NCBI GenBank assembly: GCA_003586115.2
Contig: QVOM02000042.1
Location: 35,612,277 to 35,676,276, forward strand
Direction: 5' to 3'
From: Salvator merianae
Lineage: Eukaryota; Chordata; Lepidosauria; Squamata; Teiidae
DNA: 64,000 bases
Shown here in pieces: positions 3,880 through 63,124 of this stretch (position 1 is its first letter; each line of letters starts with the position of its first letter). A program made the translations under genes and the position numbers. The notes below the pieces were generated by a model. That model saw nothing but the letters and a program-made list of their open reading frames with translations. It made no database searches and was not told the origin of the DNA.

Positions 3880-5063
3880 GGCCATGGTCCGACATCGTAA
3901 ATTTAATCCGTATCAGAAGAGTACAAGGACTGAATTCGTCTTTTGATCGTTCCCACAGTTCCATTTTAACACGGACTCAATTTGTATTTGCTCGTTCCCA
4001 CACTGATGTTTCCCATGCTTGGCATGGAGAAACAGTACCTTTTCTGCCTCCACCCCTCATCAAATTCTCCTCCCTGTGCAGTCCATGATTGGCTGCAGTC
4101 CCAACGTTCAAATCTTGATGTCATGGGGGCGGGAAAGTCAAGCTCCGCTCTCCGTATGTCCCCGCTGCTGCCTCAGAACATGGATTCACTTAGCAGCGTT
4201 ACTATCCATTCGCCATTTGCTCCTTCTCCCCCCTACAGCCTCTGTCTACACAAGCAGAACTTTAAAACCATGTGTACTGCACAATTAAGCTTCTTAAAGG
4301 GCAGATGATGATTTCTGCTCCTTTGCAAGTGCACTTTGCGCAATTGCGCAATTTGAAAGTAGTGCAAAAGCAGGGAGAGGTCCACGAAGAAGGGGAAATG
4401 TGGGGAGGGATCATGGGGGGGCCTCTATTATCGTGATAGTTCAGTTCATGGCCAGCAAATGGACTCTGCCTTATCTCCCCCCAAGATATCCGCAGCGGCA
4501 TATGTTCCCACTGTGTAGCTGTGTGCTGATGACAGCAAAACTGATCTTGAGTGGGTTCTTTGTTGGGACAAGAGGACAGGCACAGTTTCTTTTTTGTTTA
4601 ATCAGCAGTCAGAAGTGGAGGAAGCCTTTAATTTCTTCCTGGCAGTGTTGAACGGGGATAAAGAAAAAGAGAAAGGACCGCAGCTTAGCGAAGTAAAAAA
4701 GAGGACAGTTTTCTTTTCTCTTGGCAGCGACAGAAGGGGGGATAATGGAGGCAGTAGAAACTACTGTGCTTCCTGCCTACCCACAAAGTCTGTCATTGGA
4801 TGGCACGGAATAGGAAGCCCTCCCTCTGCACGCCCTCAAAAAAGTACAGTCCCTTCCAAATAGTCTCCTTCCCTGTTCTCACATTGCAAAGTAAAGCGGG
4901 CTAGCGATCTGGAACGGCTTGAGAACTCATTAAATCCGAATACAAAGTAGTCTGGATTTCTCCAATTTAGTCCAGAAAAACTACAGATCAGCAAGATCAT
5001 GTTGGGCTAGCGGGAACTGAAGACGGCCTGTAAACTGATTAAATGCCATGTTGGAACGTGGTC
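3880..5063. mobile_element. C-type DNA transposon, copy 1 (full length, 1184 bp)
   Basis: The left end GGCCATGGTCCGACATCG and the complement of the right end (GACCACGTTCCAACATGG) form imperfect terminal inverted repeats. Exact TAA duplications flank it (3877-3879 and 5064-5066), inside an L2-like LINE that continues on both sides. The interior is homologous to 5712-6790 and 59125-60700 but in inverted orientation. It contains an ATTGG (CCAAT) box at 4088 and the GC-box-like GGGGGCGGGAAAG. Its ORFs are not conserved between the three copies. The terminal repeats and TAA fit a PIF/Harbinger-like non-autonomous element. Confidence 0.8.
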
Positions 5064-5066
5064 TAA

Positions 5067-5711
5067 AATAACAATTAAAATCCAATAATTTAAAACACAA
5101 CAAAAAGGGACTGAAAGGGGAGGCAGCTACTCTTCAGCCAAATGCTAGGATAAAGTTTCATTATCATACTTTTAAAGGATACAGAAATGGGGCTAGATAC
5201 ACCTAAAAGGGCAGGTCATTCCATAACTTGGGGGCTGTCGCAAAGAAGGCTCTGTTACTTGTTTCCACTGCTATAACTGCTGAGCGTATCTCCAGCAGAT
5301 CTTAACTAACAGGTAGATCTGTACAGGAGTAGGTACTTCTTTAAAAATTTTGGGTCTGATTTATTTAGGGCTTCATGAATCACTATTGGAATCTTGAATT
5401 GGATAGGGTAGTAGATTGACATTTAGTGCAATTCTCTTACAACTTGTGTGATGTGTACCCAGTCAGAAGTAACCAGCAGTAGCCTTAGTGCTGCATCCTG
5501 CACTAATTGCAGCTTGTGAAGCATGCATGATGCATGCCAGATCCTCTCCTTCATCCAGACCCGGCATTAGAAAGCAGCAACACTAAGGCACTGGGCTGGT
5601 TGTCCGGCCTCCCCAAATTCTGCCAGCTGGGAGATATACCAGAAGGAATGATTACTTTAATACAGTTAACAATTCTTCTCCAAATCTGACTCTTCTTCTT
5701 CCTACCACGAA
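5067..5711 (-). mobile_element. L2-like LINE fragment, continuation
   Basis: This continues the fragment that starts at about 3788. Removing 3880-5063 plus one TAA rejoins AAACAATAA with AATAACAATT. Phrases such as CATTCCATAACTTGGGGGCT, GGGCTTCATGAATCACTATT and GCACTAATTGCAGCTTGTG correspond to the antisense 3' region of a widespread reptile LINE. No reverse-transcriptase motif remains. Confidence 0.5.
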
Positions 5712-6790
5712 TGAAGTCTCAAGCCATTCCAGAGCGTTAGCGTGCTTTACTTTGCAATGTGGGAACAGGGAAAGAGACTATTTGGGAGGGACCATACTTT
5801 TTGGGGGGCGTGCAGAGGGAGGGATCCCCATTTTGTGCCATCCAATGACAGACTTTGTGGGTGGGCAGGAAGCGCAGTAGTTTCCTCTGCCTCCATTATC
5901 CCCCCTTCCATCACTGCCAGGGGAAAAGAAACCGTCCTCCTTTTTACTTCGCTAAGCTGTGGTCCTTTCTCTTTCTTTATCCCCCATTCGACACTGCCAG
6001 GAAGAAATTAAAGGCTTCCTCCACTTCTGTCTGCTCTTTAAACCAAAAAATAAACTGCACCTGTTTGGGGTTGCAGTCCTCTTGCTCCAACAACGAAGCC
6101 ACTCAAGATGAGTTTCGCCATCGTCAGCACACAGCTACACAGCGGGGACACATGCCCCTGCGGATGTCTCGGGGGAAGATGAGGCAGAGTCCATTTGCTG
6201 GCAATGGACTGCACTGTCAAGATAGTAGAGCCCCCCCCACGTTCCCTCCCCACTTTTTCCCTTCCTTACGGACCTCTCTCTGCTTTTGCGCTACTTTTAA
6301 ATTGCGCAATTGCACAAAAGTGCACTTGCAAGGGAGCAGAAATCGCCATCAGCCCTTTAAAAAGCCCTTTAAAAAGCCCTTTAAAAAGCTTGTGGAACAT
6401 AGTTTTAAAGTTCTGCTTGTGTAGATAGAGGCTGTAGTGGGGAGAAGGAGCAAATGGCGAATGACTAGTAACGCTGCCAAGTGAATCCATGTTCTGAGGC
6501 AGCAGCGGGGACATACGGAGAGCAGAGCTTGACTTTCCCGCCCCTGTGACATCAAGATTTGAACGTTGGGACTGCAGCCAATCACTGACTGCACGGGGAG
6601 GGGAATTTGGCAAGGAGTGGAGGCAGAAAAGGTACTGTTTCTCCGTGCCAAGCACGGGAAATATCAGTGTGGGAACAAGCAGATATGAATTGAGTCTGTG
6701 TTAAACTGTAACTGTGGGAACGACCAGAAGACGAATTCAGTCCTTGTACTCTTCCGATACGGATTTAATTTACGATATTGGAACGCGGCC
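5712..6790. mobile_element. C-type DNA transposon, copy 2 (left end missing)
   Basis: Homologous to copy 3 (59125-60700) in the same orientation and inverted relative to copy 1. The match begins near 5712-5717 (TCTCAAGCCATTCCAGAGCG) and runs to the right terminal repeat ending GAACGCGGCC at 6790, followed by TAA. The left about 130 bp and terminal repeat are absent. A 12-bp AGCCCTTTAAAA unit is repeated three times at 6353-6388. ORFs of 189 and 129 codons are not shared with the other copies and are considered chance frames. Confidence 0.75.
6353..6388. repeat. Tandem repeat, 12-bp unit x3, in C copy 2
   Basis: Three perfect AGCCCTTTAAAA units occur where the other C copies have one. It is a private expansion inside the transposon. 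Confidence 0.85.
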
Positions 6791-6793
6791 TAA

Positions 6794-7737
6794 GTGGTAC
6801 TATTTCTGTATATGTACTATATTTCATTTTACTGGTGCCTGGAGCTGCAATCCTAGGTCATAAGCCTAACTATGCCTGCCTTACAATAAATTACATCAGA
6901 AGTAGTGTGACTTACTTCTCAATTAACATGAAAATTTCCACAGTGCAAGTGAGTATTCTTTTTCACATGTTTATTAAGAACCATGATAATTGGTAATAAT
7001 AATTAGCCCATTTCTATACTCAGCAGTGAATTACAGAAACCAAAAGAAAATGTGGATAATAAATAAACTCTTACTGTAGTGTTAGTAAAATTGAGAATAT
7101 TCAAAATGTAAATTCCTTTTCTTGCCCCCTCCAGGCTATTATCTCTCACATATCTTAGAACTGTTGACAGAGTCATGCTATGCTTGCTTCAGCTAAAACC
7201 TACTTAATAGATTATTAGTTTTCTTTTTCTCTTGAGAATCCAGATGTTGTTCTTTCTTTTTAGTGAAGGTTTATTTTATTAAGACAAAATAGGTCCACTG
7301 TCACTGCCTAGAAAGTCGTGTGTGTATATATATATATACACACACACATGGGGGGGGAGGCAGAACTAGGAGGAGGAGTAGAACCATAAAAAAGTAAAAG
7401 TAAATTGTAAAAGGAATAACCAGAAAGTCTATCAACAGGCAAATTTATGTTCTTTTCCCAGTCTACCATAAGATGGTTTTTGTTTTTTTGGCATAATATT
7501 TTAGGACTAGACACTGCTTTTTAAAAGAGGTGGCATAAGTGCTGAATGAAAGGTTTATTCTCGCAGACTTTATTGCTGCCTGAAATATTACAAATACTGG
7601 GCTACATATCTAGGTTTTGTTAGACAAGTGAATCCAGCCTTCCAGGTAAAATTATTTGACAACAGGTCTCCCAAGTCCTCAAAAAGCCTTAAAGTTCCAG
7701 CTGGCTCAGTAGCTGATGATGCCAGATACAAAGACTA
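6794..7737. other. Unassigned AT-rich sequence
   Basis: No gene or repeat family is recognised apart from the dinucleotide tract at 7320-7349. It may be a unique host spacer. Confidence 0.5.
7320..7349. repeat. Microsatellite (GT)/(TA)/(CA)
   Basis: A compound tract of GTGTGTATATATATATATACACACACACA, partly self-complementary, is followed by a G-rich run. Confidence 0.85.
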
Positions 7738-7739
7738 AG

Positions 7740-8250
7740 GTTCTTTCTGCATAAGCTCTTAGTGCATTATAGGAAAGGGCCTAGGAGCTTCTCTTCTGCG
7801 TGCTGATGCAGGATAAGAGAGGCCCCTCCTCGTATGCTCCATCCACACAGGACAGAACATACACTGGACTAGGGCATCCACAATGGCATCCTAGGCCCTT
7901 TCTGCACTTGTACTTATTCCAGATTATATCTCAGAATAGGGACCTGCCATCTGCATGCTAGTGCAGACTATGGTAGGCCCTGAGCAACACCTTTCATAGT
8001 TTGCACTAGCATGTGGATAACAGGTCCCTATTCTGGAATATAATCCACAATAAGGCCAAGTGCAGAAAGGGCCCTAGTCTGATTTACCGGTAGACCTCAT
8101 TTTGAGATCTATCAGCATACTGGCGAGTGATATACCAGACCGCAGAGGCATGGTCCAGTATACCACATGGAACCCTTTTTGGCAGTGCAACAAGGCATGC
8201 TACCAAAATGGGCCCCCAGGAGCTCTTTCATTTCAGATTGTTTTCCTGGG
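7740..8250. mobile_element. M-type DNA transposon, interrupted
   Basis: The outer parts (7740-7893 and 8077-8250) align in order with the complete M copy at 30948-31355. A TTCTTTCTGCATAAGCTC-like start is followed by CCTCGTATGCTCCATCCAC, then GATCTATCAGCATACTGG, GGCATGCTACCAAAATGGGC and CCAGGAGCTCTTTCATTTC. A 180-bp m element is nested at 7894-8073. The right terminal repeat is not recognisable. Confidence 0.6.
7894..8073. mobile_element. m-type palindromic MITE, 180 bp, intact
   Basis: The element starts GGCCCTTTCTGCACTTG and ends CAAGTGCAGAAAGGGCC, a perfect 17-bp terminal inverted repeat. The whole element is an imperfect palindrome, with CCAGATTATATCTCAGAATA mirrored by TATTCTGGAATATAATCCAC. 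It is flanked by CTA at 7891-7893 and 8074-8076. It has no coding capacity and is the same length as 42715-42894. It is nested in an M element, so it is younger than its host. Confidence 0.88.
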
Positions 8251-9290: not shown

Positions 9291-9580
9291 GGCCCTTTTC
9301 ACAGTTGCCGTTGTGCCAGAATACGAAGGGGTCCAGGGGTCTGCCATCTGCATGCTAGCATGGACTATGCAGGTCCCACCCCTCCATAGACTGCTTCATC
9401 CACTTTAGACAAATCGGTAGACTGAGATATGACTCCAAAATGGCACTATATCCCAGTCCTGCTAAGGAACTCTTGAAAGAGGTCCACAACTGGGCCAGTG
9501 CCCATATTCCAGACTACAGGATGTGTTAAGACAGCACACTCCTGTAGGCCAGAACATGACAGGGGACCCTTTTTGAACAG
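9291..9580. mobile_element. M-type DNA transposon remnant
   Basis: Starts GGCCCTTTTCACAGTTGCC and contains CCATCTGCATGCTAGCATGG, shared with M/m elements (compare 7949-7968). The right boundary is unclear. It is decayed. Confidence 0.45.
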
Positions 9581-9905: not shown

Positions 9906-12220
9906 GAGGAGTGGGCAACTTTCAGATTTTATCCCTGGAACCTCTTGAAAGAAGGTAACAAGAATCTACTTCTATATATCCCAAGAAAACTGCATGGGTG
10001 TGTTCATGTACGCAGGAAGAGTCAACCCTCATTCGATGGTGCAAAACAGAAGAAAGTAACAGGTGGAGAACTTCCACTGGCCTCCTCACCTTTTGGAGTG
10101 CCAGTGCCACCTCATGAAGTCCTCTCTTCCAGTCTCCTCAGGTGTTGGCCTCCATACACAGGCACTGGCTGCTCCTTAATTCATTTTGTAGCATTTTCAT
10201 GAGGCCCTGAGAGTGAATTAACGGGTTAAAGCTTCCTCAGAGAGGAAAACCTCTGTTCTGATCTTAAAATGTCCTTCCCTCATCCCCAGGGTGTCAACTC
10301 AGATCCCCAGTCACGTCAAAGCAGGGACTTGTGGAAACACTCTGACCCACGCGTGGGGATACATCCCCACTGCAGTAGAAATGTGCCCCTATAATAATCA
10401 ACAATTAGTAACAATGGCAGCAGTTCCAGAAAGATCTGAAGGACCTCAGGATCCCCACATCTTCAAACCAAATGAAATCGTTTACTTTTAAATTTTCAAT
10501 GTAACCAAACCTTGACCAGGCATGTTCTATGTTTTAACAAATGAAACCAAGCCAGACCAAGCCGGCTCTTTTTTGTTTTTTTAATTATGTGGATTTTAAT
10601 CCCTTCCCATGAAATGATTGCCCTCAAATTATAAACACATTTAACCTAACACCTGTTTACAGAGAAGTACATTTCATTTGGTCCTCTTCGCACTTCCCAC
10701 CCACCCCCTCCCCAGTGTGAAATTCTTAAATGATTCATTTCGTTTGCCTGTGTAGATGGGGAAAAGAGGAGGAGGAGAAATGGAAATACAGTGGGCCTGG
10801 TTTGAATTACTTCACCACATGCAAAGTTGTGGTTTGGAGCTGTGTGTCATTGTTACGAGTTGTTTGCTTTGTCTTGGGATATTGAGGAAGTTACGTAAAG
10901 AAAAGGTGAATCGTATTAACACATACCAACAATGCTTGAAAAGAATGGCTTTAGGTGTTTGCTCCACAGTAAATTAATAAATTCTGCTGGATTATTAATT
11001 TTCCCTTCTAAAATGCACCTGTAACAGGGACCAGCAGATTGTAAAAATGCAAGCCTGCCTCACCATAGTTAGGCCAGTAGGTAGTGGGTGCTCTTTAAAC
11101 GTTTACAATGTTTTGTGAGTGGAAAAGAATCTAGCACTTTAAAAAGAGAAAGATTTCTTTTCTTTTTTTTGCTTTTTTTGGTATGCTTTGAAATGTAATA
11201 TTATTAATGTGTTTAAAGTAATGGACTCTAAAGCCCGCCACATAATATTTCTTCTCACTGAGTTGTTATATACACGAAGCACTGCTAAAACTGAGAATGG
11301 AGTTTGGGATGCTCTGGCAAGATTGGACGGCTTGCACAACATTTTGGCAAGAGCTGAGCAGAAAAATGGGGACTGCGGCCTCTCATTAAAAAAAAAAAGT
11401 CTGAGACCTTGGTTTCTAAATGAGCCACAGGATGAATATGAAAACTCTGATCTGGAGACCATTCATCAGGAAATTGCCAAATACTAACAATTCATATTAT
11501 GCTTATAAGCCAGCTGGCTAGATATCTGAGAACCAAGGGGGGGGGGAGCATTTGTTCCCTTTGGGGTATGAAAAAAGGCAGCCATTAAGATATTTGGCTT
11601 CTGCTTTCCTAAATCCACCTTAAAAATCACTTAGAGCCAGTCAGAACTAACCACAGGAGATCTGGCTCACCGTAAGCAGCCTCATACCATTTATGCTGAA
11701 CCACCTCCTGGGGGGGGGGGATGACATGGCATATTTTCCACTCCATCCCTGGACAGGTTTTATGCTCCTGAGCTGTATCAGTGAGGTGGCACCAGCCCTG
11801 CCATGAGACACAGCATGAGTGAGCCATGCATGTCTTCAGGCAAGTTCATGTTGCTGTCTAGACTGTGTCAAGTTACTTTGTGTGCACGTTAGATGTTGTT
11901 CCTCAGGGGCCGGGTGGGGGGTGGGGGTGTTTAATCCTTGCCTTCTCAGCCAGCATGGGGGAATAGGGAAAAGCAATGAAAAGCAACTCTACCTCTGCGT
12001 GTCATGATGAATCCTTTTGGAGACCAAATCATGACATTTGCCAGCTTGCCTTTTTTGAATGGCCAGTTCTGAAAAGCAGATACAGGATTACAGAGGATAT
12101 TGAAGAACTTTGCTTATGAAGTGGTCACTACATCTGATCAGCGCCTGGCAGAAAAAGAGCATGAGTTCTTGATAGTTGAGAACTGGGGTACTTCTTTTGG
12201 CTTTCATAAACGTGAACCTT
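9906..12220. other. Unassigned, possibly unique host sequence
   Basis: No repeat family is recognised. A 99-codon frame at 11188-11487 lacks any domain I know. G runs lie at 11537-11546 and 11711-11720. The segment could contain conserved non-coding sequence, but that cannot be judged without alignment. Confidence 0.45.
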
Positions 12221-14614: not shown

Positions 14615-15036
14615 GGCTGTCTCCAGATGGTAACTGCAGAATGTAAAAGAAATTCCACATTCGCCTCTCACCATCCCCCGCCAGAAGTGGGAGGCAATTG
14701 CAGGCTCTTGCCTGTGTCTGCCTGCAGCTTCCATGATTGTTCCTCTTGAAAATACCTGGATGCTAGCCAGGTGCCTGCCCGCTTCCCTTTTTTCTCTCAT
14801 GCTTGACTAGCATCCAGTATTTTCAAGAGGAACAAACACAGAGGCAGCAGGAAGATGCAGGTAAGCGCTCACTATTACAAGAAGCTCAGTATCTTTGCTG
14901 GATTTCCCATAATAATGACATTTCCGGATATCACCTCAGTATCCAGCGACTATATTGGGAATATCACAGATACATGTGGTATTCCCAATATAGTCCCAAG
15001 ATAATCATGGGCTTCAGCCCACAACTGGAGATACCC
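14615..15036. mobile_element. H-type multi-hairpin DNA transposon, intact (422 bp)
   Basis: The left end GGCTGTCTCCAGATGG and the complement of the right end (GGGTATCTCCAGTTGT) form a terminal inverted repeat. Identical TTT triplets flank it (14612-14614 and 15037-15039). Two large hairpins lie inside. The arms TCCTCTTGAAAATACCTGG (from 14741) and its partner run to about 14833. The arms GACTATATTGGGAAT (14948) and ATTCCCAATATAGTC (to 14995) form the second. It has no coding capacity. Other copies or pieces are at 3062, 52968, 55797 and 57100. Confidence 0.75.
14948..14995. repeat. Perfect-arm palindrome in H element
   Basis: Arms of 15 bp (GACTATATTGGGAAT and its exact complement) surround an 18-bp loop that is itself nearly symmetrical. 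Confidence 0.9.
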
Positions 15037-17750: not shown

Positions 17751-17966
17751 ACCCAGAAGTGGCTGAGAAGTGGTAGTAAGTGGCAGCTAGTATTCAGGCG
17801 GGATGGGCAATTGCTAAATTGCTCCAGCTATTGAATCCAACAAATTTTGGGAAGAGGCTCCAGTGAACCTGGGAATGGTCTGCAAAAGATATCCTCTTGG
17901 TCTCAGCCAAGTAGGGTGTAATAATTTACAAGACCCTTTAATTTGATACATCACTAAAATCATAAT

Positions 17967-18014
17967 AGAAGAAGAAGAAGAAGAACAAGAAGAACAACAA
18001 CAACAACAACAACA
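17967..18014. repeat. Microsatellite (GAA)n/(CAA)n
   Basis: This is the A-rich trinucleotide tail belonging to the adjacent minus-strand SINE, read as (TTG)n/(TTC)n on that strand. Confidence 0.85.
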
Positions 18015-18292
18015 ACTTGGTTTTTATACCCCGCTTTTCTCGGCCGAAGCTGACTCAAAGCGGCTTACAAGGTTATTTTTTGCCCGAAGGCTTACATCTA
18101 TCTATCTTCCGCATCACACAAGTGATGCTCCCTATTTATCTATTTGCAATTACTTGCTTTTGAATAGCTAGGTTGGCTGGAGCTAGAGGCCAGTAGAGGG
18201 CGCTCATCCCCTCTACACGGCAGACGGGGCCTTGAACTCCAATCCTCCTATTGAAAGATCAGTGCCTTAGCCTTCTGTGCCACCGTGCCTCT
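18015..18292 (-). mobile_element. tRNA-derived SINE with L2-like tail, full length
   Basis: The reverse complement starts AGAGGCACGGTGGCACAGAA (tRNA-like head) and ends in a tail with GCCGCTTTGAGTCAGCTTCG then GAAAAGCGGGGTATAAAAAC and the trinucleotide tract at 17967-18014. The body phrase around GTAATTGCAAATAGATAAAT is shared with copies at 32717 and 55521. The tail suggests mobilisation by an L2-type LINE; this is inferred. Confidence 0.85.
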
Positions 18293-23527: not shown

Positions 23528-24304
23528 CGGCCTGTTCGCACTTTGGCCTAGTAAGCATCCAGCATGCTTGCTAGGCAAGTGCATTCGCACCAGAAGACGG
23601 CTGCAGCAACCTGGAGTGGGCTTCATCCACTCCCGATTGCTACGATCGCTGATGCAGTAATTAGCAGTCTGCAACCTTACCTGAAGCTCAAAGTGAGCTT
23701 CAGGTAAGGTTGCATTTGCACCTACCTGCACCACGGCAGCAGCCATCTTCCAGGCAATGTGCCCATCACGCATGCATGATCCCGCAATCACACACGTGCA
23801 ATGGGGCAATCAGGCCCGATTGCACCTGCAATGCTGGATGGGGCCATGCTGCACCCCATCCCGCATTCTGATGCCTGATTGGACACGACCAGACGGTCAC
23901 TGTGGCAGTGACCAGCAAGTGTTGGGCCACTGCCATGGCAACTGGAAGGCCCATGCACTGCGCAAGCATGATGGCAGAACATGCCTGCGGGCTAGGCCCC
24001 TCACTGTAGTGCGATTGGGCCTACCCCATCGGGCCGTGCAGCGCCCTATTTGGGCCCACACAACCCAATTGCAGCAGCCCGATCAACCCAGTCGGGCTGT
24101 GCTGGCCCGATCGGGGCACTGCGTGCCCCAATCAGGTAGGCCCGATAGCGCTACAGCAAGGTAGCCACCATCAGGTGAGCCATGGTAGTCAACTTCAGGT
24201 GAGTTTTTAGGCTCCGCCATGCAGACAGTGTATGCACGATGGGTCTATTCCACCTTAGAATGGGTTAATTAGCCCACTCTAAGGTGGATAGTGCGAACAG
24301 GCCC
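23528..24304. mobile_element. G-type hairpin-ended DNA transposon, longest copy (777 bp)
   Basis: The left end GGCCTGTTCGCACTTTGGCC and the right end TAGTGCGAACAGGCCC are near-perfect terminal inverted repeats. A hairpin-B variant (CTAGTAAGCATCCAGCATGC) follows the left end. Hairpin A (CCACCTTAGAATGGG and partner, 24250-24287) precedes the right end. Flanking triplets AAA and ATA differ by one base. The interior is GC-rich with repeated CCCGATTG/CAATCGGG phrases. ORFs of 162 and 135 codons are not conserved in other copies. Confidence 0.8.
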
Positions 24305-25430: not shown

Positions 25431-25735
25431 AAATCATAAGAGGAGCCCTTCTGGATTAGGCCACAGCCTATCTAGTCCAGTGTCCTGTCTCACACAGTGG
25501 CCCACCACTTGCTTCTGGGCATTCTCAAACAGAGATGAAGGCAAAACTCTTACCTGCTCTCAACTCCCTGCAAATGGCCTTTAGAGGCATCCTGCCTGTC
25601 TCTCCAACCAGGAGGCAGTACCTAGGAATCCATTCTAGTAGCCTCCATGAATTTTATCTAACTCTTTTTTAAAGCTATTCAGGCTGGTTGCTGTCACCAC
25701 CTACTCCAACAGTAAATTCCACAGACCAGTGAAAA
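25431..25735 (-). mobile_element. CR1-like LINE 3' region fragment
   Basis: The plus strand shows the antisense sequence GGATTAGGCCACAGCCTATC, TAGTCCAGTGTCCTGTCTCA and GGCATCCTGCCTGTCTC, ending near AGTAAATTCCACAGACCAG. The layout parallels the antisense 3' part of CR1-family elements. A second copy is at 33201-33925. It is truncated where a G element starts. Confidence 0.6.
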
Positions 25736-29565: not shown

Positions 29566-30027
29566 GGGCCTTTTTGCACTTTCCACCTTGGAATGTTCAA
29601 ATCTGAACATTCTAAGGTAGAACAGTTCCTGCAGTGTGGTGGCTGTCCGCACTGCGAGGGCTGCAACATCCCGGAAATGGGCTTCCAGCACTTGTAGTGC
29701 AAATGCTGGTCCCCCCCCCCCGCCATGACAGCGACTGGGGAAACATCTGGCCACTGCCATGGTGACGGGAGGTAGCACGTGACTGCGCAGCTGCAGTCAC
29801 AGCCACAGCTGCACCATGGCTTGCAGTGTTCACACTAGGAATGCTTCATACCGGGAGCAGTCCTGCTGCTCCTGGTAAAGCTGTGGAGCACAATTTTGTG
29901 CTCCACAGCTAGTAGCCATCAGGAGTGGCTGTAGCCGGCTCCCGATCGTGAGGACCTCCGTGAACTGCAGATGCACTTCTCTAGTGAGCATCTGATCACT
30001 CACGAGAATGTACATGCGAACAGGTCC
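29566..30027. mobile_element. G-type hairpin-ended DNA transposon (462 bp)
   Basis: The left end GGGCCTTTTTGCACTTTCC leads into hairpin A (CCTTGGAATGTTCAAATCTG and partner). The right side has hairpin B in altered form (AGTGAGCATCTGATCACTCA) and ends ATGCGAACAGGTCC. Flanking triplets TAA and CAA differ by one base. It is very similar to 48288-48719, including the GTGGAGCACAATTTTGTGCT inner palindrome. A C homopolymer at about 29711-29720 is private to this copy. Confidence 0.8.
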
Positions 30028-30947: not shown

Positions 30948-31355
30948 GGGCCTTTCTGTACTTACCTTAGAGCTGAATCAGTGCACGCTGTAGTCCTCTT
31001 CTGGGTCTGTTTTGTCCGCATGTTGGTGTAGACTAAAGAAGACCTTCCTCCTCTGGTATGCTCCAGCTGCATGAGTCAGAGTGTATTCTGGATCAGGAGC
31101 CCCAAAATGGCCTCCTCATCCACTTCAGGGCCTGAATACCACTAGGCCTGGAAAACAAGGTCTATCAGTCCACTAGGGCCATGGGGCCCCATGATATGCC
31201 TTGTTGCACCTCCACAATGGGTCCTCCAGGGACTTTCATTTCTGGCCTTCAGAACCAGTACAGGGGCTGGTCTAGAACAAATCAGAACTATCCCTTGCTT
31301 GATCCAGGTCCAGATCCACAGATCCAGACCTACACAGGTAAGTGCAGAAGGGTCC
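30948..31355. mobile_element. M-type DNA transposon, intact (408 bp)
   Basis: The left end GGGCCTTTCTGTACTTACC and the right end GGTAAGTGCAGAAGGGTCC are matching terminal inverted repeats. Exact TAG triplets flank it at 30945-30947 and 31356-31358. It is the reference copy for the M family: its internal order of phrases explains the broken copies at 7740-8250 and 31860-32330. No coding capacity. Confidence 0.85.
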
Positions 31356-32716: not shown

Positions 32717-33020
32717 GGAGGCATGGTGGCGCAGGTGGCTAAGGCACTGATCTTTCAATAGGAGGATCGGAGTTCGAGGCCCTTGTCTGCCATGTAGAGG
32801 GGATGAGCACCCTCTACTGGCCTCTAGCTCCAGTCAACCTAGCTGTTCGAAAGCAAGTAATTGCAAGTAGATAAATAGGGAGCATCACATTGTGTTGATG
32901 CGGAAGATAGATAGATGTAAGCCTTCGGGCGAAAAATAACCTTGTGAGCCGCTTTGAGTCAGCTTCGGCCGAAAAAAGTGGGGTATAAAAACCAAATTCT
33001 TCCTCTTCTTCTTCTTCTTA
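32717..33020 (+). mobile_element. tRNA-derived SINE with L2-like tail, full length
   Basis: The tRNA-like head has an A box TGGCGCAGGTGG (32727-32738) and a B box GTTCGAGGC (32772-32780). The body includes GTAATTGCAAGTAGATAAAT. The tail has GCCGCTTTGAGTCAGCTTCG then GGGGTATAAAAACC and a (TTC)n end. It is the most complete of three copies, and the intact pol III boxes suggest it was once transcribable. A functional tRNA is excluded by the unrelated body and lack of a cloverleaf. Confidence 0.9.
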
Positions 33021-33200
33021 TCATATTTCTTAAATTACCTCAGCTATTTCTCTTGCTTCTCATTTGTGCTTCAAACAGACAAGCTGGGTGTACGACTGTG
33101 GCATTACACCATTATGACTCTGGCATCACAGCACTTCGGTAACACCTTGTCTACATATGGAACAAGATGGCCACTGGGCCATAATGAGCATAACAATATA

Positions 33201-33543
33201 AGAGAACGTAAGAACATATGAAAAACTATGCTGGATCAGGCTGCAGTTCCAGATGGGATGTTGTATTAAGTCCAGCATCTGAATTCGCACAGTGACAAGC
33301 AATTTGCTTCTGGGCACTCTCAAGCAGAAGACAAAGGCAAAACACTCACTGGCTCTCAACTCCCTGCAAATGGCCTTTAGAGACATCCTGCCTGTCTCTC
33401 CGCTCTGGAGGTAGCATCTAGGCATCCAGACTAGTAGCTATTGAAACATCTATCCTGCACGACTTTGTCCAGCCTCTTCTTAAACCCATCCACCTAGTGG
33501 CCTTCATTACTTCTTATGGTAGTAAATTCCAAAGAATAATGAC
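33201..33543 (-). mobile_element. CR1-like LINE 3' region, first part
   Basis: The antisense repeat is the same as at 25431-25735 (GGATCAGGCTGCAGTTCCAG, CTCAACTCCCTGCAAATGGC, GGCCTTTAGAGACATCCTGC). It breaks at 33543 where a hAT-like MITE is inserted. Confidence 0.65.
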
Positions 33544-37688: not shown

Positions 37689-38020
37689 TTTGACACCGAA
37701 GCACCTTCATTCCCCAGCATCAAAGTTAGCACGGGGCAGGACATGCAGACGAAACAGACAGCAGTCCCGTCTGTTCCTGGACCTTAGCAAATCACTCCGA
37801 CCCACGCAAAGACTATCCAGCGCCTGTATGAATCCTACCTAAGACTAGTGTGGCATCATAGCGCCTGTTCGCACTTACAACGGTATAACAGTATAACTAG
37901 CACTGTTCAGGCCGGTAGCGTTCGGGAACAGAGAGAGGTCTTCGCACCTGTCAGTGTTGGAACACTCCGCAAGCCAACCAGCACTGGACACAGTGCGAAT
38001 GGGAGCGTACTAGCTCAGTA

Positions 38021-38080
38021 GTCTGTGTTTGAACTTAGAGGGTCTGTGTTCGAACTTAGAGGGTCTGTGTTCGAACCTGT
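38021..38080. repeat. Tandem repeat, 21-bp unit x about 2.7, in J copy 1
   Basis: The unit is GTCTGTGTTTGAACTTAGAG plus G, repeated with one change and then decaying after GTCTGTGTTCGAACC. It occupies the position where J copy 3 has a different 20-bp tandem array. Confidence 0.88.
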
Positions 38081-38134
38081 GTCCGAAAAGGCCACCAGAG
38101 TCTGGACCCCAAGGTCCAAACCAGGGTGCAAACC

Positions 38135-38188
38135 TGCGCCTGCGCAACCCCGCCGGCCCCGCCCCGCTGCCATTTTGAACCCGGAAAT
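38135..38188. promoter_or_regulatory. Promoter-like motif cluster inside J element
   Basis: Within 54 bp there is an NRF1-like TGCGCCTGCGCA, GC-box sequence, a YY1-like GCCATTTTGA and an ETS-like CCGGAAAT, all in a CpG-rich setting. The cluster is repeated at 43685-43740 and partly at 46080-46110. Binding is inferred from motif form only. Confidence 0.45.
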
Positions 38189-38396
38189 GGTGAGAACGCA
38201 CCTTCCCTGATCCTCATCTGATTGTGCAGGTCGGGTTGGAGACTACAAATTAGTTGACCACAGCTGGTTGGATTCAGGTAAGCATCAGGTGGGCTTTAGT
38301 AGATTTCAGGTCAGCTGGGGCTGTTCGCAAGTGCGGATCCTGCGTTCTAGCATGCGCCCTGAAACATACCACTTGCTAAGTGCGAACAGGCCCATA

Positions 38397-41804: not shown

Positions 41805-42243
41805 GGGCCTGTTCACACTTAGTGAGTGGAATGTTCCAGGACACTTGCTGGAACAAAGCATTCGAACCTACAAACAGCCCCTGCCGACTGGAAACTCACC
41901 AGAGCCCACCTGACGCTCACTTGAAGCCTACCAGTTGTGGTCAAGAAAACTGTAATCTTGACACTTTCGGGGCAGGGACTGCATGATTGCACAGGTGCCG
42001 TCAGATGATTCAAACCCAGGTTCAGACTTTGGGTCCAGAACCTGGCAGCCGTTCTGGACACAAGTCCAGACACAGCTCCTCTGGGTCCGGACACAGCTAC
42101 CTAACTAGTGCACTCCCATTCACACTGCTCCTCACAAAGCATTCCAGCACTGACAGGTGCGAACACTCCTCACTGTATCCAATCCCGGCCAGCGCGAACC
42201 CTGCTAGTTAGAACATTCTACAGTCATAAGTGCGAACAGACCC
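41805..42243. mobile_element. J-type DNA transposon, copy 2, intact (439 bp)
   Basis: The left end GGGCCTGTTCACACTTA and the right end TAAGTGCGAACAGACCC are terminal inverted repeats with exact AAT triplets outside (41802-41804 and 42244-42246). The interior is inverted relative to copy 1 and shares CTAGTGCACTCCCATTCACA and GGTCCGGACACAGC-type phrases. The CpG-rich promoter-like core of copy 1 is not preserved here. Confidence 0.85.
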
Positions 42244-45729: not shown

Positions 45730-46324
45730 GGGCCTTTTCACACTAGCTCCATAGTCCGTTCCCAGTAGTTGGCTTCGGACCGGAGGGGTTGGAGAACGCT
45801 GGCTGCCCTTCGCACTCCCAGCCAGAGGAACGGACCCGAAGCCGACCAGCAGAGGGAACAGTGCAAATGGCAGCCGCTAGTTCAATACCACACTCCATAC
45901 CATCGAGCTCCGCTTCGTAACCAAAGGGCTCCTTATGGAGCCGGCTTCGTAACAGCAGCTAGGCTGCCATGCCCAAAGGGCTATCCCGGGACGGAGCATC
46001 GTACCGGAGTGTGAAGCTTCGTACCGGGGTGTGAAGCTTCGTACCGGGGTGTGAAGTTTCGGACCACGCATGTGGAGCCGCGCCACCCACGCCCAGCCGC
46101 CATTTCAAACACCAACGGGAGTGCGAAAGCACCGTGCCCGATCTTCGCTCCATCGCACAGGTCAGAATGAAGACAAGCTTTTACTTGTCTAGCCTTACCC
46201 AGGATCAGGTATGAATCGGGTACGATGTGGTTCAGATCGGGTGAGGCGCATGCCCGTGGCAGTGCGAAAGCTCCGTTCCAGCGAACGGACAAGAATGTTC
46301 CACCGCCGTAGTGCGAAAAGGCCC
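45730..46324. mobile_element. J-type DNA transposon, copy 3, intact (595 bp)
   Basis: The left end GGGCCTTTTCACACTAG and the right end GTAGTGCGAAAAGGCCC are terminal inverted repeats with exact ATC triplets outside (45727-45729 and 46325-46327). The interior has a 20-bp tandem array (45996-46060) and a GC-rich section with CCGCCATTTCAAACACC. This corresponds to the promoter-like core of copy 1. It is strongly CpG-rich overall. ORFs of 81-103 codons are compositional. Confidence 0.88.
45996..46060. repeat. Tandem repeat, 20-bp unit x about 3.2, in J copy 3
   Basis: The unit GCTTCGTACCGGGGTGTGAA is repeated three times with one or two changes, then decays. It is analogous in position to the 21-bp array of J copy 1 but differs in sequence. 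Confidence 0.88.
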
Positions 46325-48287: not shown

Positions 48288-48719
48288 GGGCCTTTTTGCA
48301 CTTTCCATTTTGGAATGTTCACAATCAAACATTCCAAGATGGAACAGACCTTGCACTGCAGTGGCCATCTACACTGCGAGGGCTGAAACAGCCTGGAAAT
48401 GGGCATCCAGCATTTGCAGTGCGAATGCTGGTCACCACCATGCCAGCGGCTAGGGAAATGTCCGACTGCTGCCATGGCGACTAGGAATGTGGTGTATGAT
48501 TGCACAGCCACAGCTGTGCAGCGCAGTGTTTGCACCCAGAAGTAGGTGCGAACATTGCATACCGAGAGCAGTGCAGCTGCTCCTGGTATAGCTATGGAGC
48601 ACAATTTTGTGCTCCACAGCTAGAAGCGATCAAGAATGGCTGTAGACTGCTCCCAATCGCTAAGGCGAAGTATAGGGTCTCTGTGGAGATGCTCACTAGT
48701 GAAAAGTGTGAACAGGCTC
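48288..48719. mobile_element. G-type hairpin-ended DNA transposon, intact (432 bp)
   Basis: The left end GGGCCTTTTTGCACTTTCC and the right end AAGTGTGAACAGGCTC are terminal inverted repeats with exact TAG triplets outside (48285-48287 and 48720-48722). Hairpin A is next to the left end (TTTGGAATGTTCACAATCAA and partner). A shortened hairpin B (GATGCTCACTAG) is near the right. An inner palindrome GAGCACAATTTTGTGCTC lies at about 48597-48614. No conserved coding frame. Confidence 0.85.
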
Positions 48720-48722
48720 TAG

Positions 48723-50593: not shown

Positions 50594-51045
50594 GGGCCTG
50601 TTTGCACTTTGTTGCTAGTGAGCATCCGGATACTCACTAGCAAAGTGCATCTGCACTTTGCGGAGGCCCCAGCGTTTTGGAGTGTCTGCAGATGCTTCCA
50701 AACAGTACTAGCTGTGGACAGCTAAATTGCTATCCACAGCTTGAAGAGGAGCAGCTGGATTGCTTCTGGTCAGCAGCCTTTACACCTGTTTCCAGATGCA
50801 AATATTGCAGCCCGTGGCATGGCTGCGCAGTCATGGGCCATGTCCCTGGACACCATGGCAGCAGCCGGACATTTCTGCAGCCACTGCCATGGTGGGTGGA
50901 CCAGCATCTGCACTGTGAGTGCTGGAAACCTGTTTCCTGGCTGTTCGAGCCCTTGCAGTGTGGATGGCCGCCGCACCTCTGGGTCTGTTCCAGCGCAGAA
51001 TGGTATAATTAACCATTCTACCCTGGCAACTGCAAACTGGCTCCT
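50594..51045. mobile_element. G-type hairpin-ended DNA transposon, right terminus lost
   Basis: The left end GGGCCTGTTTGCACTTTG leads into hairpin B (GCTAGTGAGCATCCGGATAC and partner, 50612-50643). The right side has hairpin A in decayed form (AATGGTATAATTAACCATTC, 50999-51018), but no terminal repeat follows. It is inverted relative to 29566-30027 and 48288-48719. Overlapping ORFs on both strands (up to 135 codons) are not conserved. Confidence 0.72.
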
Positions 51046-54380: not shown

Positions 54381-54426
54381 GTCTCTCTCACACTGTTATT
54401 TCTGTTTTATATTTATCGTTTCATAA

Positions 54427-55520: not shown

Positions 55521-55770
55521 TCCAGCCAACCTAGCTGTTCGAAAGCAAGTAATTGCAAGTAGATAAATAGGGAGCATCACTTTGTGTAATGCGGAAGATA
55601 GATGTAAGCCTTCGGGCAAAAAATAACCTTGTAAGCCGCTTTGAGTCAGCTTCAGCCGAGAAAAGCGGGGTATAAAAACCAAATAATAATTCTTCTTCTT
55701 CTTCTTCTTCTTCTTCTTCTTCTTCTTCTTCTTCTTCTTCTTCTTCTTCTTCTTCTTCTTCTTCTTCTTC
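55521..55770 (+). mobile_element. tRNA-derived SINE with L2-like tail, 5'-truncated
   Basis: Lacks the tRNA head and starts at AACCTAGCTGTTCGAAAGC. It then follows the full-length copy at 32717 through GCCGCTTTGAGTCAGCTTC and GAAAAGCGGGGTATAAAAAC. It ends in a greatly expanded TTC tail. Confidence 0.88.
55690..55770. repeat. Microsatellite (TTC)27
   Basis: 27 uninterrupted TTC units (GAA on the other strand), grown from the SINE tail. The 120-codon frame across it (55641-56003) is a leucine run made by the repeat. Confidence 0.97.
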
Positions 55771-55796
55771 TATTACGTCAAAGCAGGCATCATGGC

Positions 55797-57290: not shown

Positions 57291-57500
57291 TAGATCAGGG
57301 CTGTTGGTCCCATTGGTAAACCCAATTAATTGGGTATTGAGTCTACCAGTGATCCAGATTAAGGTCTCTCTTATTCTGGATCATACCCTGAAGACAGAGC
57401 AGACCTCATAGATGCACACTAGTGTGAGGATGTATGAAGTCTAGAAGTATACTACATGTACCCTTAATACGGATTAAGGGTCTGTTGAGAAAGGTCCTCA
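57291..57500. mobile_element. M-like DNA transposon remnant
   Basis: TTATTCTGGATCATACCCTG and GGATTAAGGGTCTGTTGAGA followed by AAGGTCC resemble M/m subterminal sequence. The left end is missing. Confidence 0.4.
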
Positions 57501-59012: not shown

Positions 59013-59124
59013 TGTTATGTCCGAGGCAGGCTGACAAACGGAGTCCACAGCAAGCCTCGGTAACAGAGAAGTCCTTTTATTAACAGTCCGGGTCACAACA
59101 GGGAGACAGTAGATAGCAAACAAA
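59013..59124 (-). mobile_element. LTR-like element, downstream part of LTR
   Basis: On the minus strand this portion contains a polyadenylation signal AATAAA (plus strand TTTATT, 59076-59081) and ends in ...GGACATAACA, a CA end as expected of an LTR. It is cut by the insertion of C copy 3 and resumes at 60701. It would correspond to R/U5. Confidence 0.55.
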
Positions 59125-60700
59125 GGCTGCGTTCGGACACGGCATTTAATCAGTTTACAGGCCGTCTTCAGTTCCCGCTGTCCCGACATGATCTTGCCTT
59201 TCCGTAATTTTTATGGATTAAATAGGCTAAATGCGCATTACTTTGTCTTCGGATTTTATCAATTCTCAAGCCGTTCCAGATCGCTAGCGCGCTTTACTTT
59301 TGCTGTGGGCACGGAGAAAGCGAATCTGTGGGAGGGACCGTAATTTTTTGTGGGCGTGCAGAGGGAGGGATTCCCATTTTGTGCCGTCCAATGACAGACG
59401 TTGTGGGTGGGCGTTCTGCTAGGGAGGCCGGCACGGTCCTCAGGAAAGCTAGCATGGCGTACAGGCAAATTTTTCATCAGCTTCCTGTATTCCCTTCTCT
59501 GCCGCTGCGCGATGAAAGGAGAAGCTGCCATCCCTTCTCCCCATGTCGCTGTGTTCTGCCCACTCCTCCTATTCAGCAGTGCCGTGGGGAAAGTTACGGC
59601 TTCATCAGCAGCCCGCCGTCTTTCTTTCCTCGCCAGCCACTTTTGTGTAAAAGCGCTGTAGCACCGAAGCACAGGAAAAGAAAACGGCAAGATCATAAAA
59701 TCACAATTCTCCTCTACTTTGTGGGCGTGTGTGTCTCCCTCCCTGTGCTTCTTGCTCTGTGTCAGTGGTTGTAGGATGAAAATGGGGGGCTTCGTGGGGG
59801 GCGGATGAGAAGAAGCTTTGTTAGATGTTGTAAATCCTTCGCACGGACATGTGTGAGAAGGAGGAGGAGGAGGAGAAGGCGCCTGCTGTGCTCCACGCTT
59901 CTTAAAAAAATATAAAAAAAATTAAGTTTGCCCGAGTGTTGGAAGAAGAGGTTTTTTATTGCCTCCAATGAATTTTTTAAGCTGCAGTGCTTTCTCTTTC
60001 TTTATCCCCCATTCAAGAAATTAAATTCCGTCTGCTCTTTAAAGGAAAAAATAAACTGCTCCCGATTGTTAGGATCTCTGCAAAATGCAGAAGCACTTGA
60101 TTGTCAAAAGAGTAGAGCCCCCCCCCAATTCCCCTCCCCACTTCTTCCCATTGTTATGCACCTCCCCTGCTTTTACGCTACTTTTAAAAAGCGCAGTTGT
60201 GCTAACGTGAATCAGCAGGATAGCAGAACTCCGCATTTCAAAAACTTAGTTAAAGTGAATCAGCAGGATAGCAGAACTCCGCATTTCAAAAGCTTAGTTT
60301 TTTAAAGTTCATAGTTTTAAAGTGAACGTAGTTTTAAGTTCTGCCTCGGTAGACAGAGGCTGCAGGGAGGAGCAAATGGCGAATGCCTAGTAACGCTGCC
60401 AAGTGAATCTCTGTTCTGAAGTAGCAGCAGGGACATAGGAGAATGGAGCTTGACTTTCCCGCCCCTGTGACGTCAAGGTTTGAACGTTGGGACTGCAGCC
60501 AATCGCTGACTGCATAGGGAGGAGAATTTGATGAGGGGTGGAGGCAGAAAGGGTACTGCCAAGCACGGGAAATATCAGTGTGGGAACAAGCAAGTACGAA
60601 TTGACTCCATGTTAAATTGTAACTGTGGGAACGACCAGAAGACGAATTCACTGCGTGTACTCTTCTATACGGATTACATTGACGATGTCCGACCACGGCC
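59125..60700. mobile_element. C-type DNA transposon, copy 3 (full length, 1576 bp)
   Basis: The left end GGCTGCGTTCGGACACGGC and the complement of the right end (GGCCGTGGTCGGACATCG) are terminal inverted repeats. AAA triplets flank it (59122-59124 and 60701-60703). Promoter-like sites include a GC box, a consensus CRE TGACGTCA (60468-60475) and CCAAT (60499-60503). A direct duplication of about 48 bp lies at 60207-60300. Overlapping frames of up to 148 codons exist on both strands, but they are not conserved in copies 1 and 2. No transposase motif is seen. Confidence 0.82.
60207..60300. repeat. Tandem duplication, about 48-bp unit x2, in C copy 3
   Basis: GTGAATCAGCAGGATAGCAG then AACTCCGCATTTCAAAA and CTTAGTT occurs twice in a row with few differences. 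Confidence 0.88.
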
Positions 60701-61560
60701 AAAGCCGAAGGAGCAAGAGAAGCCGTAGTCAAAGTCCAATCCAAGTTCAAACAGGGTTGTAGTCACCGAAGCAAATAAAGTCCAGGGATTAAGAGAAGCC
60801 AAAGTCAAAAGGCAGTCCAAACAAAGGGTCAAGGTTCTAGAAGCCAGGAGATCAGAGTAACAGGATGCATGGATGGAAAGCAGTTGCTGACCATGCCTGG
60901 GGTGCAGTCCCTGTGTTGTATTTATACTGCAGGATCATCTTCTCCCAGGTGTGAGCTTGGGTGTGGCCGACTTCTGCTAGATTGCTTACACAAGCTCAGC
61001 TGAGCCCTGTGTTTGGCCCTTCTTCTTTCTATGGCTGGAGGTGGGATGTTTGCAGGAACCTCTGATGTTTGCAAAACATCTCCTGCCGATGTTTGTGCTT
61101 CGTCCTCTGGGATGGAGATAAGTTGTCTGGGCTCTGTGCCACCTGGAGCTGCCTGCTCAACATCTACATAGCTCTCAGGCTGAACACCGCCCTCATCCTC
61201 AGAGTCCAAGGCACTCATAACATCTACATCCACAACTGGATATAATGCTGCCCTAGTGTTAGCATCAGCCCTTTCCCTATATGCACCTTGCTTATGTACA
61301 CAAACTCCCTGAGTGCACTCAGACCATCCAGTTGGGAATTCAGAATGCACCAGTATCAAACTTTGAAGGGCGGAGGAACGAGCTTGAGGTTGGAGTGGCT
61401 CAACCGTAGCCCAAAATGTAGATATCCCTGCTGCCACCAGGGCAATGCACCTGCAAAGAGCAGTTTGGGTTTCTCCCTTCCAAATAAATGACCTTATAAG
61501 GCTTTTGTAGATTCTTGGCAAGAGGGGCATAAAAAGTAACATAGGATCCTCATGCAATCA
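60701..61560 (-). mobile_element. LTR-like retroelement end: upstream LTR part and adjacent reading frame
   Basis: Minus-strand reading: a TATA box (plus strand TATTTATAC, 60919-60927) lies about 260 bp from the AATAAA at 59076 once the C insertion is removed, a normal LTR spacing. Upstream, a 211-codon frame (61557-60922) is rich in acidic residues and proline and runs into the LTR-like part. It could be the end of a Gypsy-type polyprotein. No protease, reverse transcriptase or integrase motif is present. The outer LTR border is not determined, and the family name is uncertain. Confidence 0.5.
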
Positions 61561-61829
61561 ATGTAAACTGAACACAAAAACATGCACGAAGTGTAGCCAT
61601 AAACAAAGTGAAGCAGCCAGCCAAACAGCACAGGCCCAAGCCAGTCAGCTAGTGGTTGTACTGGTTTCTATGACCCTTTGGTTTCTGCACCCCTAGCAAA
61701 AAGGCAATCTTGCCCAATAGTGGCTGTATCTGCGGTAGATAAATAGAGGCACACTAAAGATTCTGTTACCTTGTTGGGTGACAGTGCTGGCTTTGAGAAA
61801 ACAATTGTGTCAATATACCAGTTGAGTGA
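61561..61829. other. Unassigned sequence
   Basis: May be further retroelement sequence. Nothing specific is recognised. Confidence 0.35.
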
Positions 61830-61975
61830 GAGGGTTGTAGCTGTCTGGACAGCAGAGGGTTGCAGGTTTGATCACCATCCTCTTCCTGGAAGTAGGCAAT
61901 GGCAAACCACTTCTGTATCTCTGCCAAGAAAACTGCATAGAGAGCAGTCGAGTGGTTGTGTAGCTTATCTGGGTT
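61830..61975 (+). mobile_element. tRNA-derived SINE with Bov-B-type tail (Sauria-like)
   Basis: A B-box-like GGTTTGATCACC lies at about 61865-61876. Next come GTAGGCAATGGCAAACCACT, TCTGTATCTCTGCCAAGAAA and ACTGCATAGAGAGCAGTCGA. This is the order of squamate SINEs with a Bov-B-like end. It is 3'-truncated or decayed. Confidence 0.6.
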
Positions 61976-62250
61976 AAGGTATACAACAAGATAGGAGAGA
62001 GAGGACCCTCAGAAGAAGTGAAGGTGGGATAACGCTCACCCCATTTTCTGCACGTACTGGACTTCTCGCTGTGCAAGCGATGCCCCACATAAATTAGCAC
62101 AGGCTTTCTTGCTATGTGCATGTTTAGCTGCCCTGTGGAGATTGCAGCAAGCAGCCATTGGGGAGCAGGCCAGGGACCTCTTTCCTCTTCCAAACAAAAT
62201 TCAGTTATAGCAAAGTGCCTGACGAGAATGGAGAACAAGAGAGTGAAAGA
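61976..62250. other. Unassigned sequence
   Basis: No gene or repeat family is recognised. Confidence 0.4.
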
Positions 62251-63124
62251 GGCATTTCCTGCACTTACTAATATCCCAGCATAGTGTGGGGCCTCAAACA
62301 CCGCTGAGCCTATTGCTCCACTCTCTGGTGTGGAACAGAAGATGCCCTACCCCCTGCTGGGCTGCTTTATCCACCCATTTCGGCCATCTCCCTAGGGTCC
62401 TTGTGTTGGTTTAGCAAGCGGACCCGTTTCAGCCATCTCCCTAGGGCCCTTGTGTTGGTTTAGCAAGGGGATCCGTTTCGGCCGTCTCCCTAGGGCCCTT
62501 GTGTTGGTTTAGCAAGGGGACCCGTTTCGGCCGTCTCCCTAGGGCCCTTGTGTTGGTTTAGCAAGGGGACCCGTTTCGGCCGTCTCCCTAGGGCCCTTGT
62601 GTTGGTTTAGCAAGGGGACCCGTTTCGGCCGTCTCCCTAGGGCCCTTGTGTTGGTTTAGCAAGGGGACCCGTTTCAGCTGTCTCCCTAGGGCCCTTGTGT
62701 TGGTTTAGCAAGGGGATCCGTTTCAGCTGTCTCCCTAGGGCCCTTGTGTTGGTTTAGCAAGGGGACCCGTTTCGGCCGTCTCCCTAGGGCCCTTGTGTTG
62801 GTTTAGCAAGGGGACCCGTTTCGGCCGTCTCCCTAGGGTCCTTGTGTTGGTTTAGCAAGGGGACCCGTTTCGGCCGTCTCCCTAGGGTCCTTGTGTTGGT
62901 TTAACAAGGGAACCCGTTTCAGCTGTCTCCCTAGGGCACTGAAGCCAAGAACCTTCATCCCTGGTGTCAGAGCCCTTGCAGCAGGTGATGCAGGACCTGC
63001 CCCGGAACAGGCCTCCAAGTGCAGATGGCTTTGTTCTTGGACAGCTGACTGCTCCAGCTGGGAGCCACTCCAGTCTAATGGATCCAGCTGTAGTAGTCCA
63101 GCACAGGTAAGTGTTCAAACAGTC
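62251..63124. mobile_element. M-type DNA transposon expanded by a minisatellite (874 bp)
   Basis: The left end GGCATTTCCTGCACTTAC and the complement of the right end (GACTGTTTGAACACTTACC) form a decayed M terminal inverted repeat. AGA triplets flank it (62248-62250 and 63125-63127). Non-repeat sequence such as CCTGCCCCGGAACAGGCC and GGGAGCCACTCCAG corresponds to 13985-14070 in another M copy. About two thirds of its length is the 49-bp tandem array. Confidence 0.65.
62373..62937. repeat. Minisatellite, 49-bp unit, about 11.5 copies
   Basis: Unit ACCCGTTTCGGCCGTCTCCC followed by TAGGGCCCTTGTGTTGGTTT and AGCAAGGGG. Eleven full units start at 62373 and every 49 bp after, plus a partial unit of about 26 bp. 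Units differ by only a few bases (CGGCC/CAGCT/CAGCC, GGGCCC/GGGTCC), with the outermost units most divergent. 49 is not a multiple of 3, so the open frames across it are not selected. Confidence 0.97.

What the first reader, a model, noticed from the sequence alone, without database searches (positions are those of the whole stretch)
3880..63124. A group of non-autonomous transposons sharing GG...CC ends and exact 3-bp target duplications
Eleven copies from six families (C, G, J, M, m, H) have inverted ends beginning GGGCC, GGCC or GGCTGT. Each is flanked by an identical triplet: TAA, AAA, TAG, ATA, AAT, ATC, TAG, AGA, CTA, TTA or TTT. G, J, M and m also share a GCACTT block about 10 bp from the end. 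Three-base duplications are known for PIF/Harbinger (usually TWA), Zator and some others. The triplets here are mostly A/T-rich but not TWA-limited. One transposase system with relaxed target choice may have driven all these families, and it could be poorly described.
Basis: partly seen in the sequence, partly recalled or inferred. Interest (0 to 1): 0.8.

Follow-up and report, generated by a model that had tools for sequence, protein, structure and literature searches.

The report
Harbinger MITEs with loose insertion triplets
This stretch of a lizard-like genome holds many short jumping-gene remnants that each duplicated three bases on insertion; most look like members of the known PIF/Harbinger superfamily, but the families examined choose sites by an 11-base palindrome around the triplet, not by the usual TTA/TAA triplet alone.

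Summary
In the window 12 of 14 delimited elements with GG...CC ends have identical 3-bp flanks, none identical 4-bp flanks. Copies elsewhere in the same genome agree: exact 3-bp flanks in 16/27 (J), 16/38 (m) and 6/11 (C). Paralogous empty sites show one triplet. A transposase was found: an 11,973-bp element with m/J-type ends and AAT on both sides encodes a DDE_Tnp_4 transposase and Myb/SANT proteins, and family m shares its 3' end (79.6% over 152 bp). So this is PIF/Harbinger, not an undescribed superfamily. The loose triplet is real: sites follow ANAC-NWN-GTNT, with an AWT core in m and J and a YWA core in C, so at least two target specificities are likely. Loose cores (ANT, CWG, CTNAG) are already described for Pangu and Nuwa elements (PMC4482050). 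An ANT-like core together with Myb genes, a 12-kb size and a second, convergent Myb gene seems unusual. New variant of a known kind. Families G and H could not be tested genome-wide; J and C are linked by ends and target only.

The parts
3880..5063 (+). Family C element, whole unit (1184 bp), TSD TAA
   Evidence: Ends GGCCATGGTCC and (inward) GACCACGTTCC; flanks TAA/TAA; collinear with L133 and L134; inserted in another repeat, empty paralogues L137-L140
5710..6790 (-). Second family C copy, inverted, inner end missing; TAA follows its outer end
   Evidence: Self-alignment; C unit length
7894..8073 (+). Family G element, TSD CTA
   Evidence: two paralogous empty sites (L048, L045) with a single CTA
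14615..15036 (+). Family H element, TSD TTT; assignment to PIF/Harbinger not tested
   Evidence: Ends GGCTGTCTCCAG / GGGTATCTCCAG
23528..24304 (+). GGCC-ended element, flanks AAA/ATA (one mismatch)
   Evidence: similar to L004 761-1056 at 72%
29566..30027 (+). GGGCC-ended element, flanks TAA/CAA (one mismatch)
30948..31355 (+). Family K element, TSD TAG
37861..38393 (+). Family J element, TSD ATA
41805..42243 (+). Family J element, TSD AAT; query for the genome-wide set L031-L060
42715..42894 (+). Family G element, TSD TTA
   Evidence: strings printed at its head
45730..46324 (+). Family m element, TSD ATC; 46119-46270 matches the 3' end of the autonomous element
48288..48719 (+). Family M element, TSD TAG
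50594..51043 (+).
59125..60700 (-). Family C element, TSD AAA
62251..63124 (+). Family K element, TSD AGA, with a 49-bp tandem array inside

Best explanation
[quoted passage not shown] Inferred from the superfamily: a Myb/SANT protein binds the GG...CC ends and brings in a DDE transposase, which cuts the element out and inserts it with a 3-nt stagger, so that gap repair leaves 3-bp duplications. Shown here: an about 12-kb element with m/J-type ends, a DDE transposase and two Myb/SANT genes; 3-bp duplications in copies of J, m and C across the genome; paralogous empty sites with one triplet; and a palindromic site preference ANAC-NWN-GTNT that reaches 4 bp beyond the triplet on each side. The triplet looks free because part of the preference lies outside it. 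Two core preferences occur: AWT (m, J and autonomous lineage B) and YWA (C, and the 5' flanks of autonomous lineage A), so at least two related transposases probably supplied the families.
For: Autonomous copy at C682:1689151-1701123 in the host genome, ends GGGCCTTTTTGCACTGAGG... and GGGCCTTTTGCACTG..., AAT on both sides. DDE_Tnp_4 2.8e-33 in this copy and Myb_DNA-bind_4 1.4e-8 in the homologous copy L062 (71% identical over 91 residues here); second Myb gene of this copy 1.3e-19. PF13359: 391 candidates, 150 scored, all 150 over the cut-off. Family m against the autonomous 3' end: 79.6% over 152 bp. A 640-bp element (L004 86-725) with ATT on both sides carries relatives of both autonomous ends. 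5' flanks of transposase-bearing lineage B copies: ATT, AAT, AGT, ACT, GAT (L064-L068) and AAT (L010). Exact triplets 16/38 (m; 1.8 expected if flanks were independent), 16/27 (J; 1.0 expected), 6/11 (C). Target motif by side, C at -4: m 48/76, J 30/54, C 15/22 against 22% background. Empty sites with one triplet: L052 (ACT), L055 (CTT), window G1 (CTA), L077.
Against: 22 of 38 m, 11 of 27 J and 5 of 11 C copies do not have an exact triplet. For m this exceeds what decay explains: 13 of 38 have 2 or 3 mismatches with 0.2-0.9 expected. In the comparison of 13 window elements with 43 autonomous-locus stretches, C, G, H, K and M gave no hit at E 1e-3; J gave only short hits at the edge of L025 that look like a nested J copy; 23528 and 29566 hit only a part of L004 that itself holds nested elements. 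The link of these families rests on ends and, for J and C, on target. C ends were not found beside any transposase examined. G and H genome searches did not complete. No phylogeny with named PIF/Harbinger groups was possible.
Confidence: 0.87

Rival explanations
1. One transposase with fully relaxed target choice drove all families.
For: m, J and C share the outer target motif (C at -4, A at -5 and -7) and GG...CC ends; m and J share ends and core.
Against: C differs from m/J at the core: pooled with autonomous 5' flanks, -1 T/A is 78/35 in m+J+lineage B and 5/26 in C+lineage A, Fisher P about 2e-7. The two sides of one insertion are not independent, so the P is too small; one of the six 'lineage B' flanks pooled there (L004) belongs to the 640-bp derivative. 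C ends also differ in sequence, and two autonomous lineages with different ends exist.
Confidence: 0.12
2. A different 3-bp-TSD superfamily (Zator, Academ, Chapaev3; their TSDs are recalled) or a new one moved some of the families, most plausibly H.
For: H has a different end (GGCTGTCTCC/GGGTATCTCC) and no genome-wide test was possible; one delimited copy only.
Against: For m the transposase is identified; J and C share the target motif.
Confidence: 0.08
3. The matching triplets are chance or end-picking artefacts.
For: Ends were chosen by eye in the window, and A/T-rich flanks raise chance identity.
Against: 12/14 at 3 bp with 0/14 at 4 bp; 16/38 and 16/27 genome-wide against 1.8 and 1.0 expected, with ends set by a fixed score; paralogous empty sites.
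Confidence: 0.01

Closest known systems
PIF/Harbinger superfamily (PMC4482050: abstract, sections 6 and 7 and passages seen; PMC2836001 and PMC9179366: passages seen)
   Same: DDE transposase plus Myb/SANT protein, 3-bp TSD, MITEs. An insertion preference reaching beyond the TSD is reported there for all characterised members, 9 bp in PIF and mPing (PMC2836001).
   Different: Usual TSD is TWA; here TAA/TTA stands on 4/76 m, 1/54 J and 4/22 C flank sides. The motif found here is 11 bp. About 12 kb with two Myb genes, against the typical two-gene element.
Pangu group (PMC4482050 section 6)
   Same: ANT-type TSD (5 of 6 transposase-bearing lineage B 5' flanks are ANT); ends often GG.
   Different: Pangu: about 3.5 kb on average, no known motif in the second ORF, reported from invertebrates, fungi, algae and a heterokont. 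Here Myb genes, 12 kb, a lizard-like host. Phylogenetic place not tested.
NuwaI group (PMC4482050 section 7)
   Same: GGG ends, transposase plus Myb/SANT protein, 12 bony fish among its 16 hosts. The zebrafish Harbinger3 site, as I recall it, has the same outer letters; a full-text search for the recalled string found no paper.
   Different: TSD CWG there; AWT or YWA here.
NuwaII group (PMC4482050, passages seen)
   Same: C|TNA|G target resembles the 5' flanks of lineage A (C at -4 in 13/15, A at -1 in 12/15) and of family C.
   Different: Lineage A's 3' end was not found, so its TSD is not shown.
Harbinger-Snek of sea kraits (PMC8437027, passages seen)
   Same: Reptile Harbinger with many short non-autonomous derivatives.
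   Different: Reported as horizontally acquired in Laticauda; sequences not compared here.

Membership tests
PIF/Harbinger superfamily | DDE_Tnp_4 (HARBI1-type) transposase in a copy with the same ends | tested here: met
   for m/J-type ends; not found for C ends; not tested for G, H
PIF/Harbinger superfamily | Second gene with Myb/SANT domain | tested here: met
PIF/Harbinger superfamily | 3-bp TSD | tested here: met
PIF/Harbinger (strict TWA group) | TWA target | tested here: not met
   TAA/TTA on 4/76 m, 1/54 J and 4/22 C flank sides
Pangu | ANT TSD | tested here: inconclusive
   Transposase-bearing copies 5/6; flank sides m 20/76, J 16/54
Pangu | Second ORF without known motif, element about 3.5 kb | tested here: not met
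   Myb_DNA-bind_4, 11,973 bp
NuwaI | CWG TSD | tested here: not met
   No CWG among the 16 exact m triplets; one CTG among the exact J triplets
Pangu/NuwaI/NuwaII | Position in DDE-domain phylogeny | not testable with these tools
Zator | Zator-type transposase | not tested
   Not searched, because a DDE_Tnp_4 partner was found

The most novel reading that the evidence does not exclude
A squamate PIF/Harbinger lineage forms its own group: about 12 kb, two divergent Myb/SANT genes, and a target read largely through an outer palindrome (ANAC..GTNT) that lets the central triplet drift between AWT and YWA. The second Myb protein might add to end or target recognition and so loosen the triplet rule.
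Probability: 0.2. Interest if true: 0.55.

Novelty: new variant of a known kind. Interest (0 to 1): 0.36.

Why it matters
It moves a set of puzzling MITEs from unknown to PIF/Harbinger and gives a testable rule for where they land. It also warns that sorting elements by triplet alone (TWA, ANT, CWG, TNA) can mislead, because families in one genome share an outer site and differ in the core. A 12-kb element with two Myb genes would be a natural system for asking what the Myb partner contributes to target choice.

Tried and rejected
Considered and rejected: one 2.9-kb C element (it is a 1.19-kb unit plus an inverted partial copy); Tc1/mariner (triplets without TA, and paralogous empty sites with one triplet); chance triplets.

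Led nowhere: Rfam scan of the window at gathering thresholds, 0 matches; 3' end of autonomous lineage A; C-type ends beside transposases; a 476-aa HARBI-like ORF without recognisable ends in the 2.4 kb fetched; the first divergence estimate for m was wrong because copies were not oriented, and was redone; the first C right-end windows missed because the unit length was wrong; the first whole-window TIR-pair scan (161 pairs) mostly returned interior pairs.

Not answered: genome searches for family G and family H.

Rows dropped before counts: J 27 used of 30 loci (3 with weak ends; the 27 include the window copy itself), m 38 of 39 (one weak end; window copy not among them), C 11 of 16 (5 without a recognisable right end). 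Lineage A 5' flanks: 17 loci reduced to 15 distinct flanks. The 'B_aut5' set has six flanks, one of which (L004) proved to be the end of a 640-bp derivative, and lacks L010; I report the transposase-bearing copies apart.
Full report
Setting. The window is G000:C1402:35612277-35676276 of a 2.05-Gb assembly with 1816 contigs. The second Myb gene described below is 89% identical, over 38% of the query, to a Salvator merianae protein, and the best transposase relatives are from lizards and turtles. The host is therefore probably a teiid-like lizard; this is inference.

Observation. Ends and flanks were read directly. Of 14 elements with both ends delimited, 12 have identical 3-bp flanks and none identical 4-bp flanks; the other two differ at one of three positions. 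All 11 triplets in the finding are among the 12. One reading changes: the long inverted arms at 3874-6796 are not one element. Genome copies L133 and L134 show a unit of about 1.19 kb with TAA/TAA and CAA/CAA, so the window has a complete C (3880-5063) and a separate inverted partial copy.

Genome-wide test. With the J copy as query, 40 of 9052 candidates were scored and 30 loci fetched, the window's own copy among them; 27 passed the end score used, and 16 of these have exact triplets against 1.0 expected from mispaired flanks. In one search, with a slightly different end score (28 of 30), one copy (L041) matched at 4 bp in another register and 16 at exactly 3. With the m copy, 40 of 7270 candidates were scored and the 39 other than the window's own were fetched; 38 passed, 16 have exact triplets against 1.8 expected, and 0 of 38 match at 4 bp. 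For C, 40 of 3709 candidates were scored, 16 copies were examined, 11 had both ends, 6 are exact and 0 match at 4 bp. Candidate counts come from a loose first look and are not copy numbers.

Empty sites. Joining flanks with one triplet aligns through the junction to element-free paralogues: L052 (ACT) to several copies of the same host repeat, including window 25538-25641 and 33323-33472; L055 (CTT) to neighbouring units of its own repeat; the window G copy (CTA) to L048 and L045; L077, an m copy inserted in a J copy, to many J copies. C1 aligns to L137-L140 with small indels near the junction, so that case alone does not fix the length.

Target. Counting both flanks inward, m and J share A at -7, A at -5, C at -4, then A-W-T; C shares the outer letters but has Y-W-A. 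Positions -8 to -12 carry 0.05 bits or less in m and at most 0.21 bits in J. The binomial P values treat the two sides of an insertion as independent and are therefore too small. C at -4 is enriched in all three families and at the 5' flanks of both autonomous lineages; A at -7 is not enriched at the autonomous flanks (4/15 and 2/6).

Transposase. DDE_Tnp_4 matches the genome at 150 scored places of 391 candidates, all 150 above the cut-off. By DNA similarity and ends the 30 fetched loci fall into two groups: lineage A, GGGTACGATCACAC... (ends not found in some members); lineage B, GGGCCTKTTCGCACTGAGG. One lineage B element was delimited in full: C682:1689151-1701123, 11,973 bp, AAT on both sides. 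It has two open exon-like frames (252 and 267 residues); the second carries the DDE domain. A Myb/SANT gene lies on the same strand; its domain was scored on the homologous copy L062 and is 71% identical over 91 residues in this element. A second Myb/SANT gene lies on the opposite strand near the 3' end (1.3e-19). An exon that I read as the C-terminus of that gene is 80-87% conserved in two other copies; the Myb exon itself was seen in only one element among the stretches held. Gene models are inferred from open frames; there are no expression data.

Linking families to the transposase. Family m shares 152 bp with the autonomous 3' end (79.6%) and 208 bp (77.9%) with a 640-bp internally deleted derivative, L004 86-725, that carries relatives of both autonomous ends and ATT flanks. 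J shares the 14-16-bp end and the target. C shares only the GG...CC character and the outer target, and its core resembles that of lineage A. G, K and M share the end sequence in the window. H stands apart.

Literature. PMC4482050 (abstract, sections 6 and 7, and passages seen) divides the wider group into TWA (PIF/Harbinger), ANT (Pangu), CWG (NuwaI, Myb-encoding, GGG ends) and CTNAG (NuwaII), besides ISL2EU and Spy. PMC2836001 (passages seen) states that preference beyond the 3-bp TSD is a feature of all characterised members. The finding therefore extends known diversity. I did not see an ANT-type, Myb-encoding reptile lineage in the listings of my searches; the library holds only open-licence papers and I opened few of those listed, so this is weak evidence of absence, and Repbase/Dfam could not be consulted.

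Unexplained. m copies are young (4.7% from the majority sequence, 2.2% outside CpG), yet 13 of 38 have two or three mismatches between flanking triplets where decay predicts 0.2-0.9, while their flanks on average still fit the target better than background. Ectopic recombination, hybrid-end insertion or assembly chimeras are possible.

Verdict. Observation confirmed; interpretation partly supported; PIF/Harbinger with a loose core and an outer palindromic site; a new variant of a known kind.

Noticed in passing
L074-L112 (copies of window 45730-46324): 13 of 38 young m copies have flanking triplets that differ at two or three positions, although their flanks on average still look like genuine targets.
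   Followed up: partly
62373-62937: A 49-bp unit repeated 11.5 times inside a K-family element flanked by AGA.
   Followed up: no
L161 871-2298: A 476-aa HARBI-like open frame without recognisable element ends in the 2.4 kb fetched; could be a domesticated gene.
   Followed up: partly
17964-18291, 32718-33048, 55521-55775: Three copies of a SINE-like repeat ending in simple repeats, about 90% alike.
   Followed up: no
G000:C682 element, positions 6365-6952 and 10960-11589 on the minus strand of the element: A second, convergent Myb/SANT-like gene in a Harbinger element, with an 89% match (38% of query) in Salvator merianae.
   Followed up: partly
25538-25641 and 33323-33472: Copies of a dispersed repeat that serves as an empty site for a J insertion elsewhere.
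   Followed up: yes
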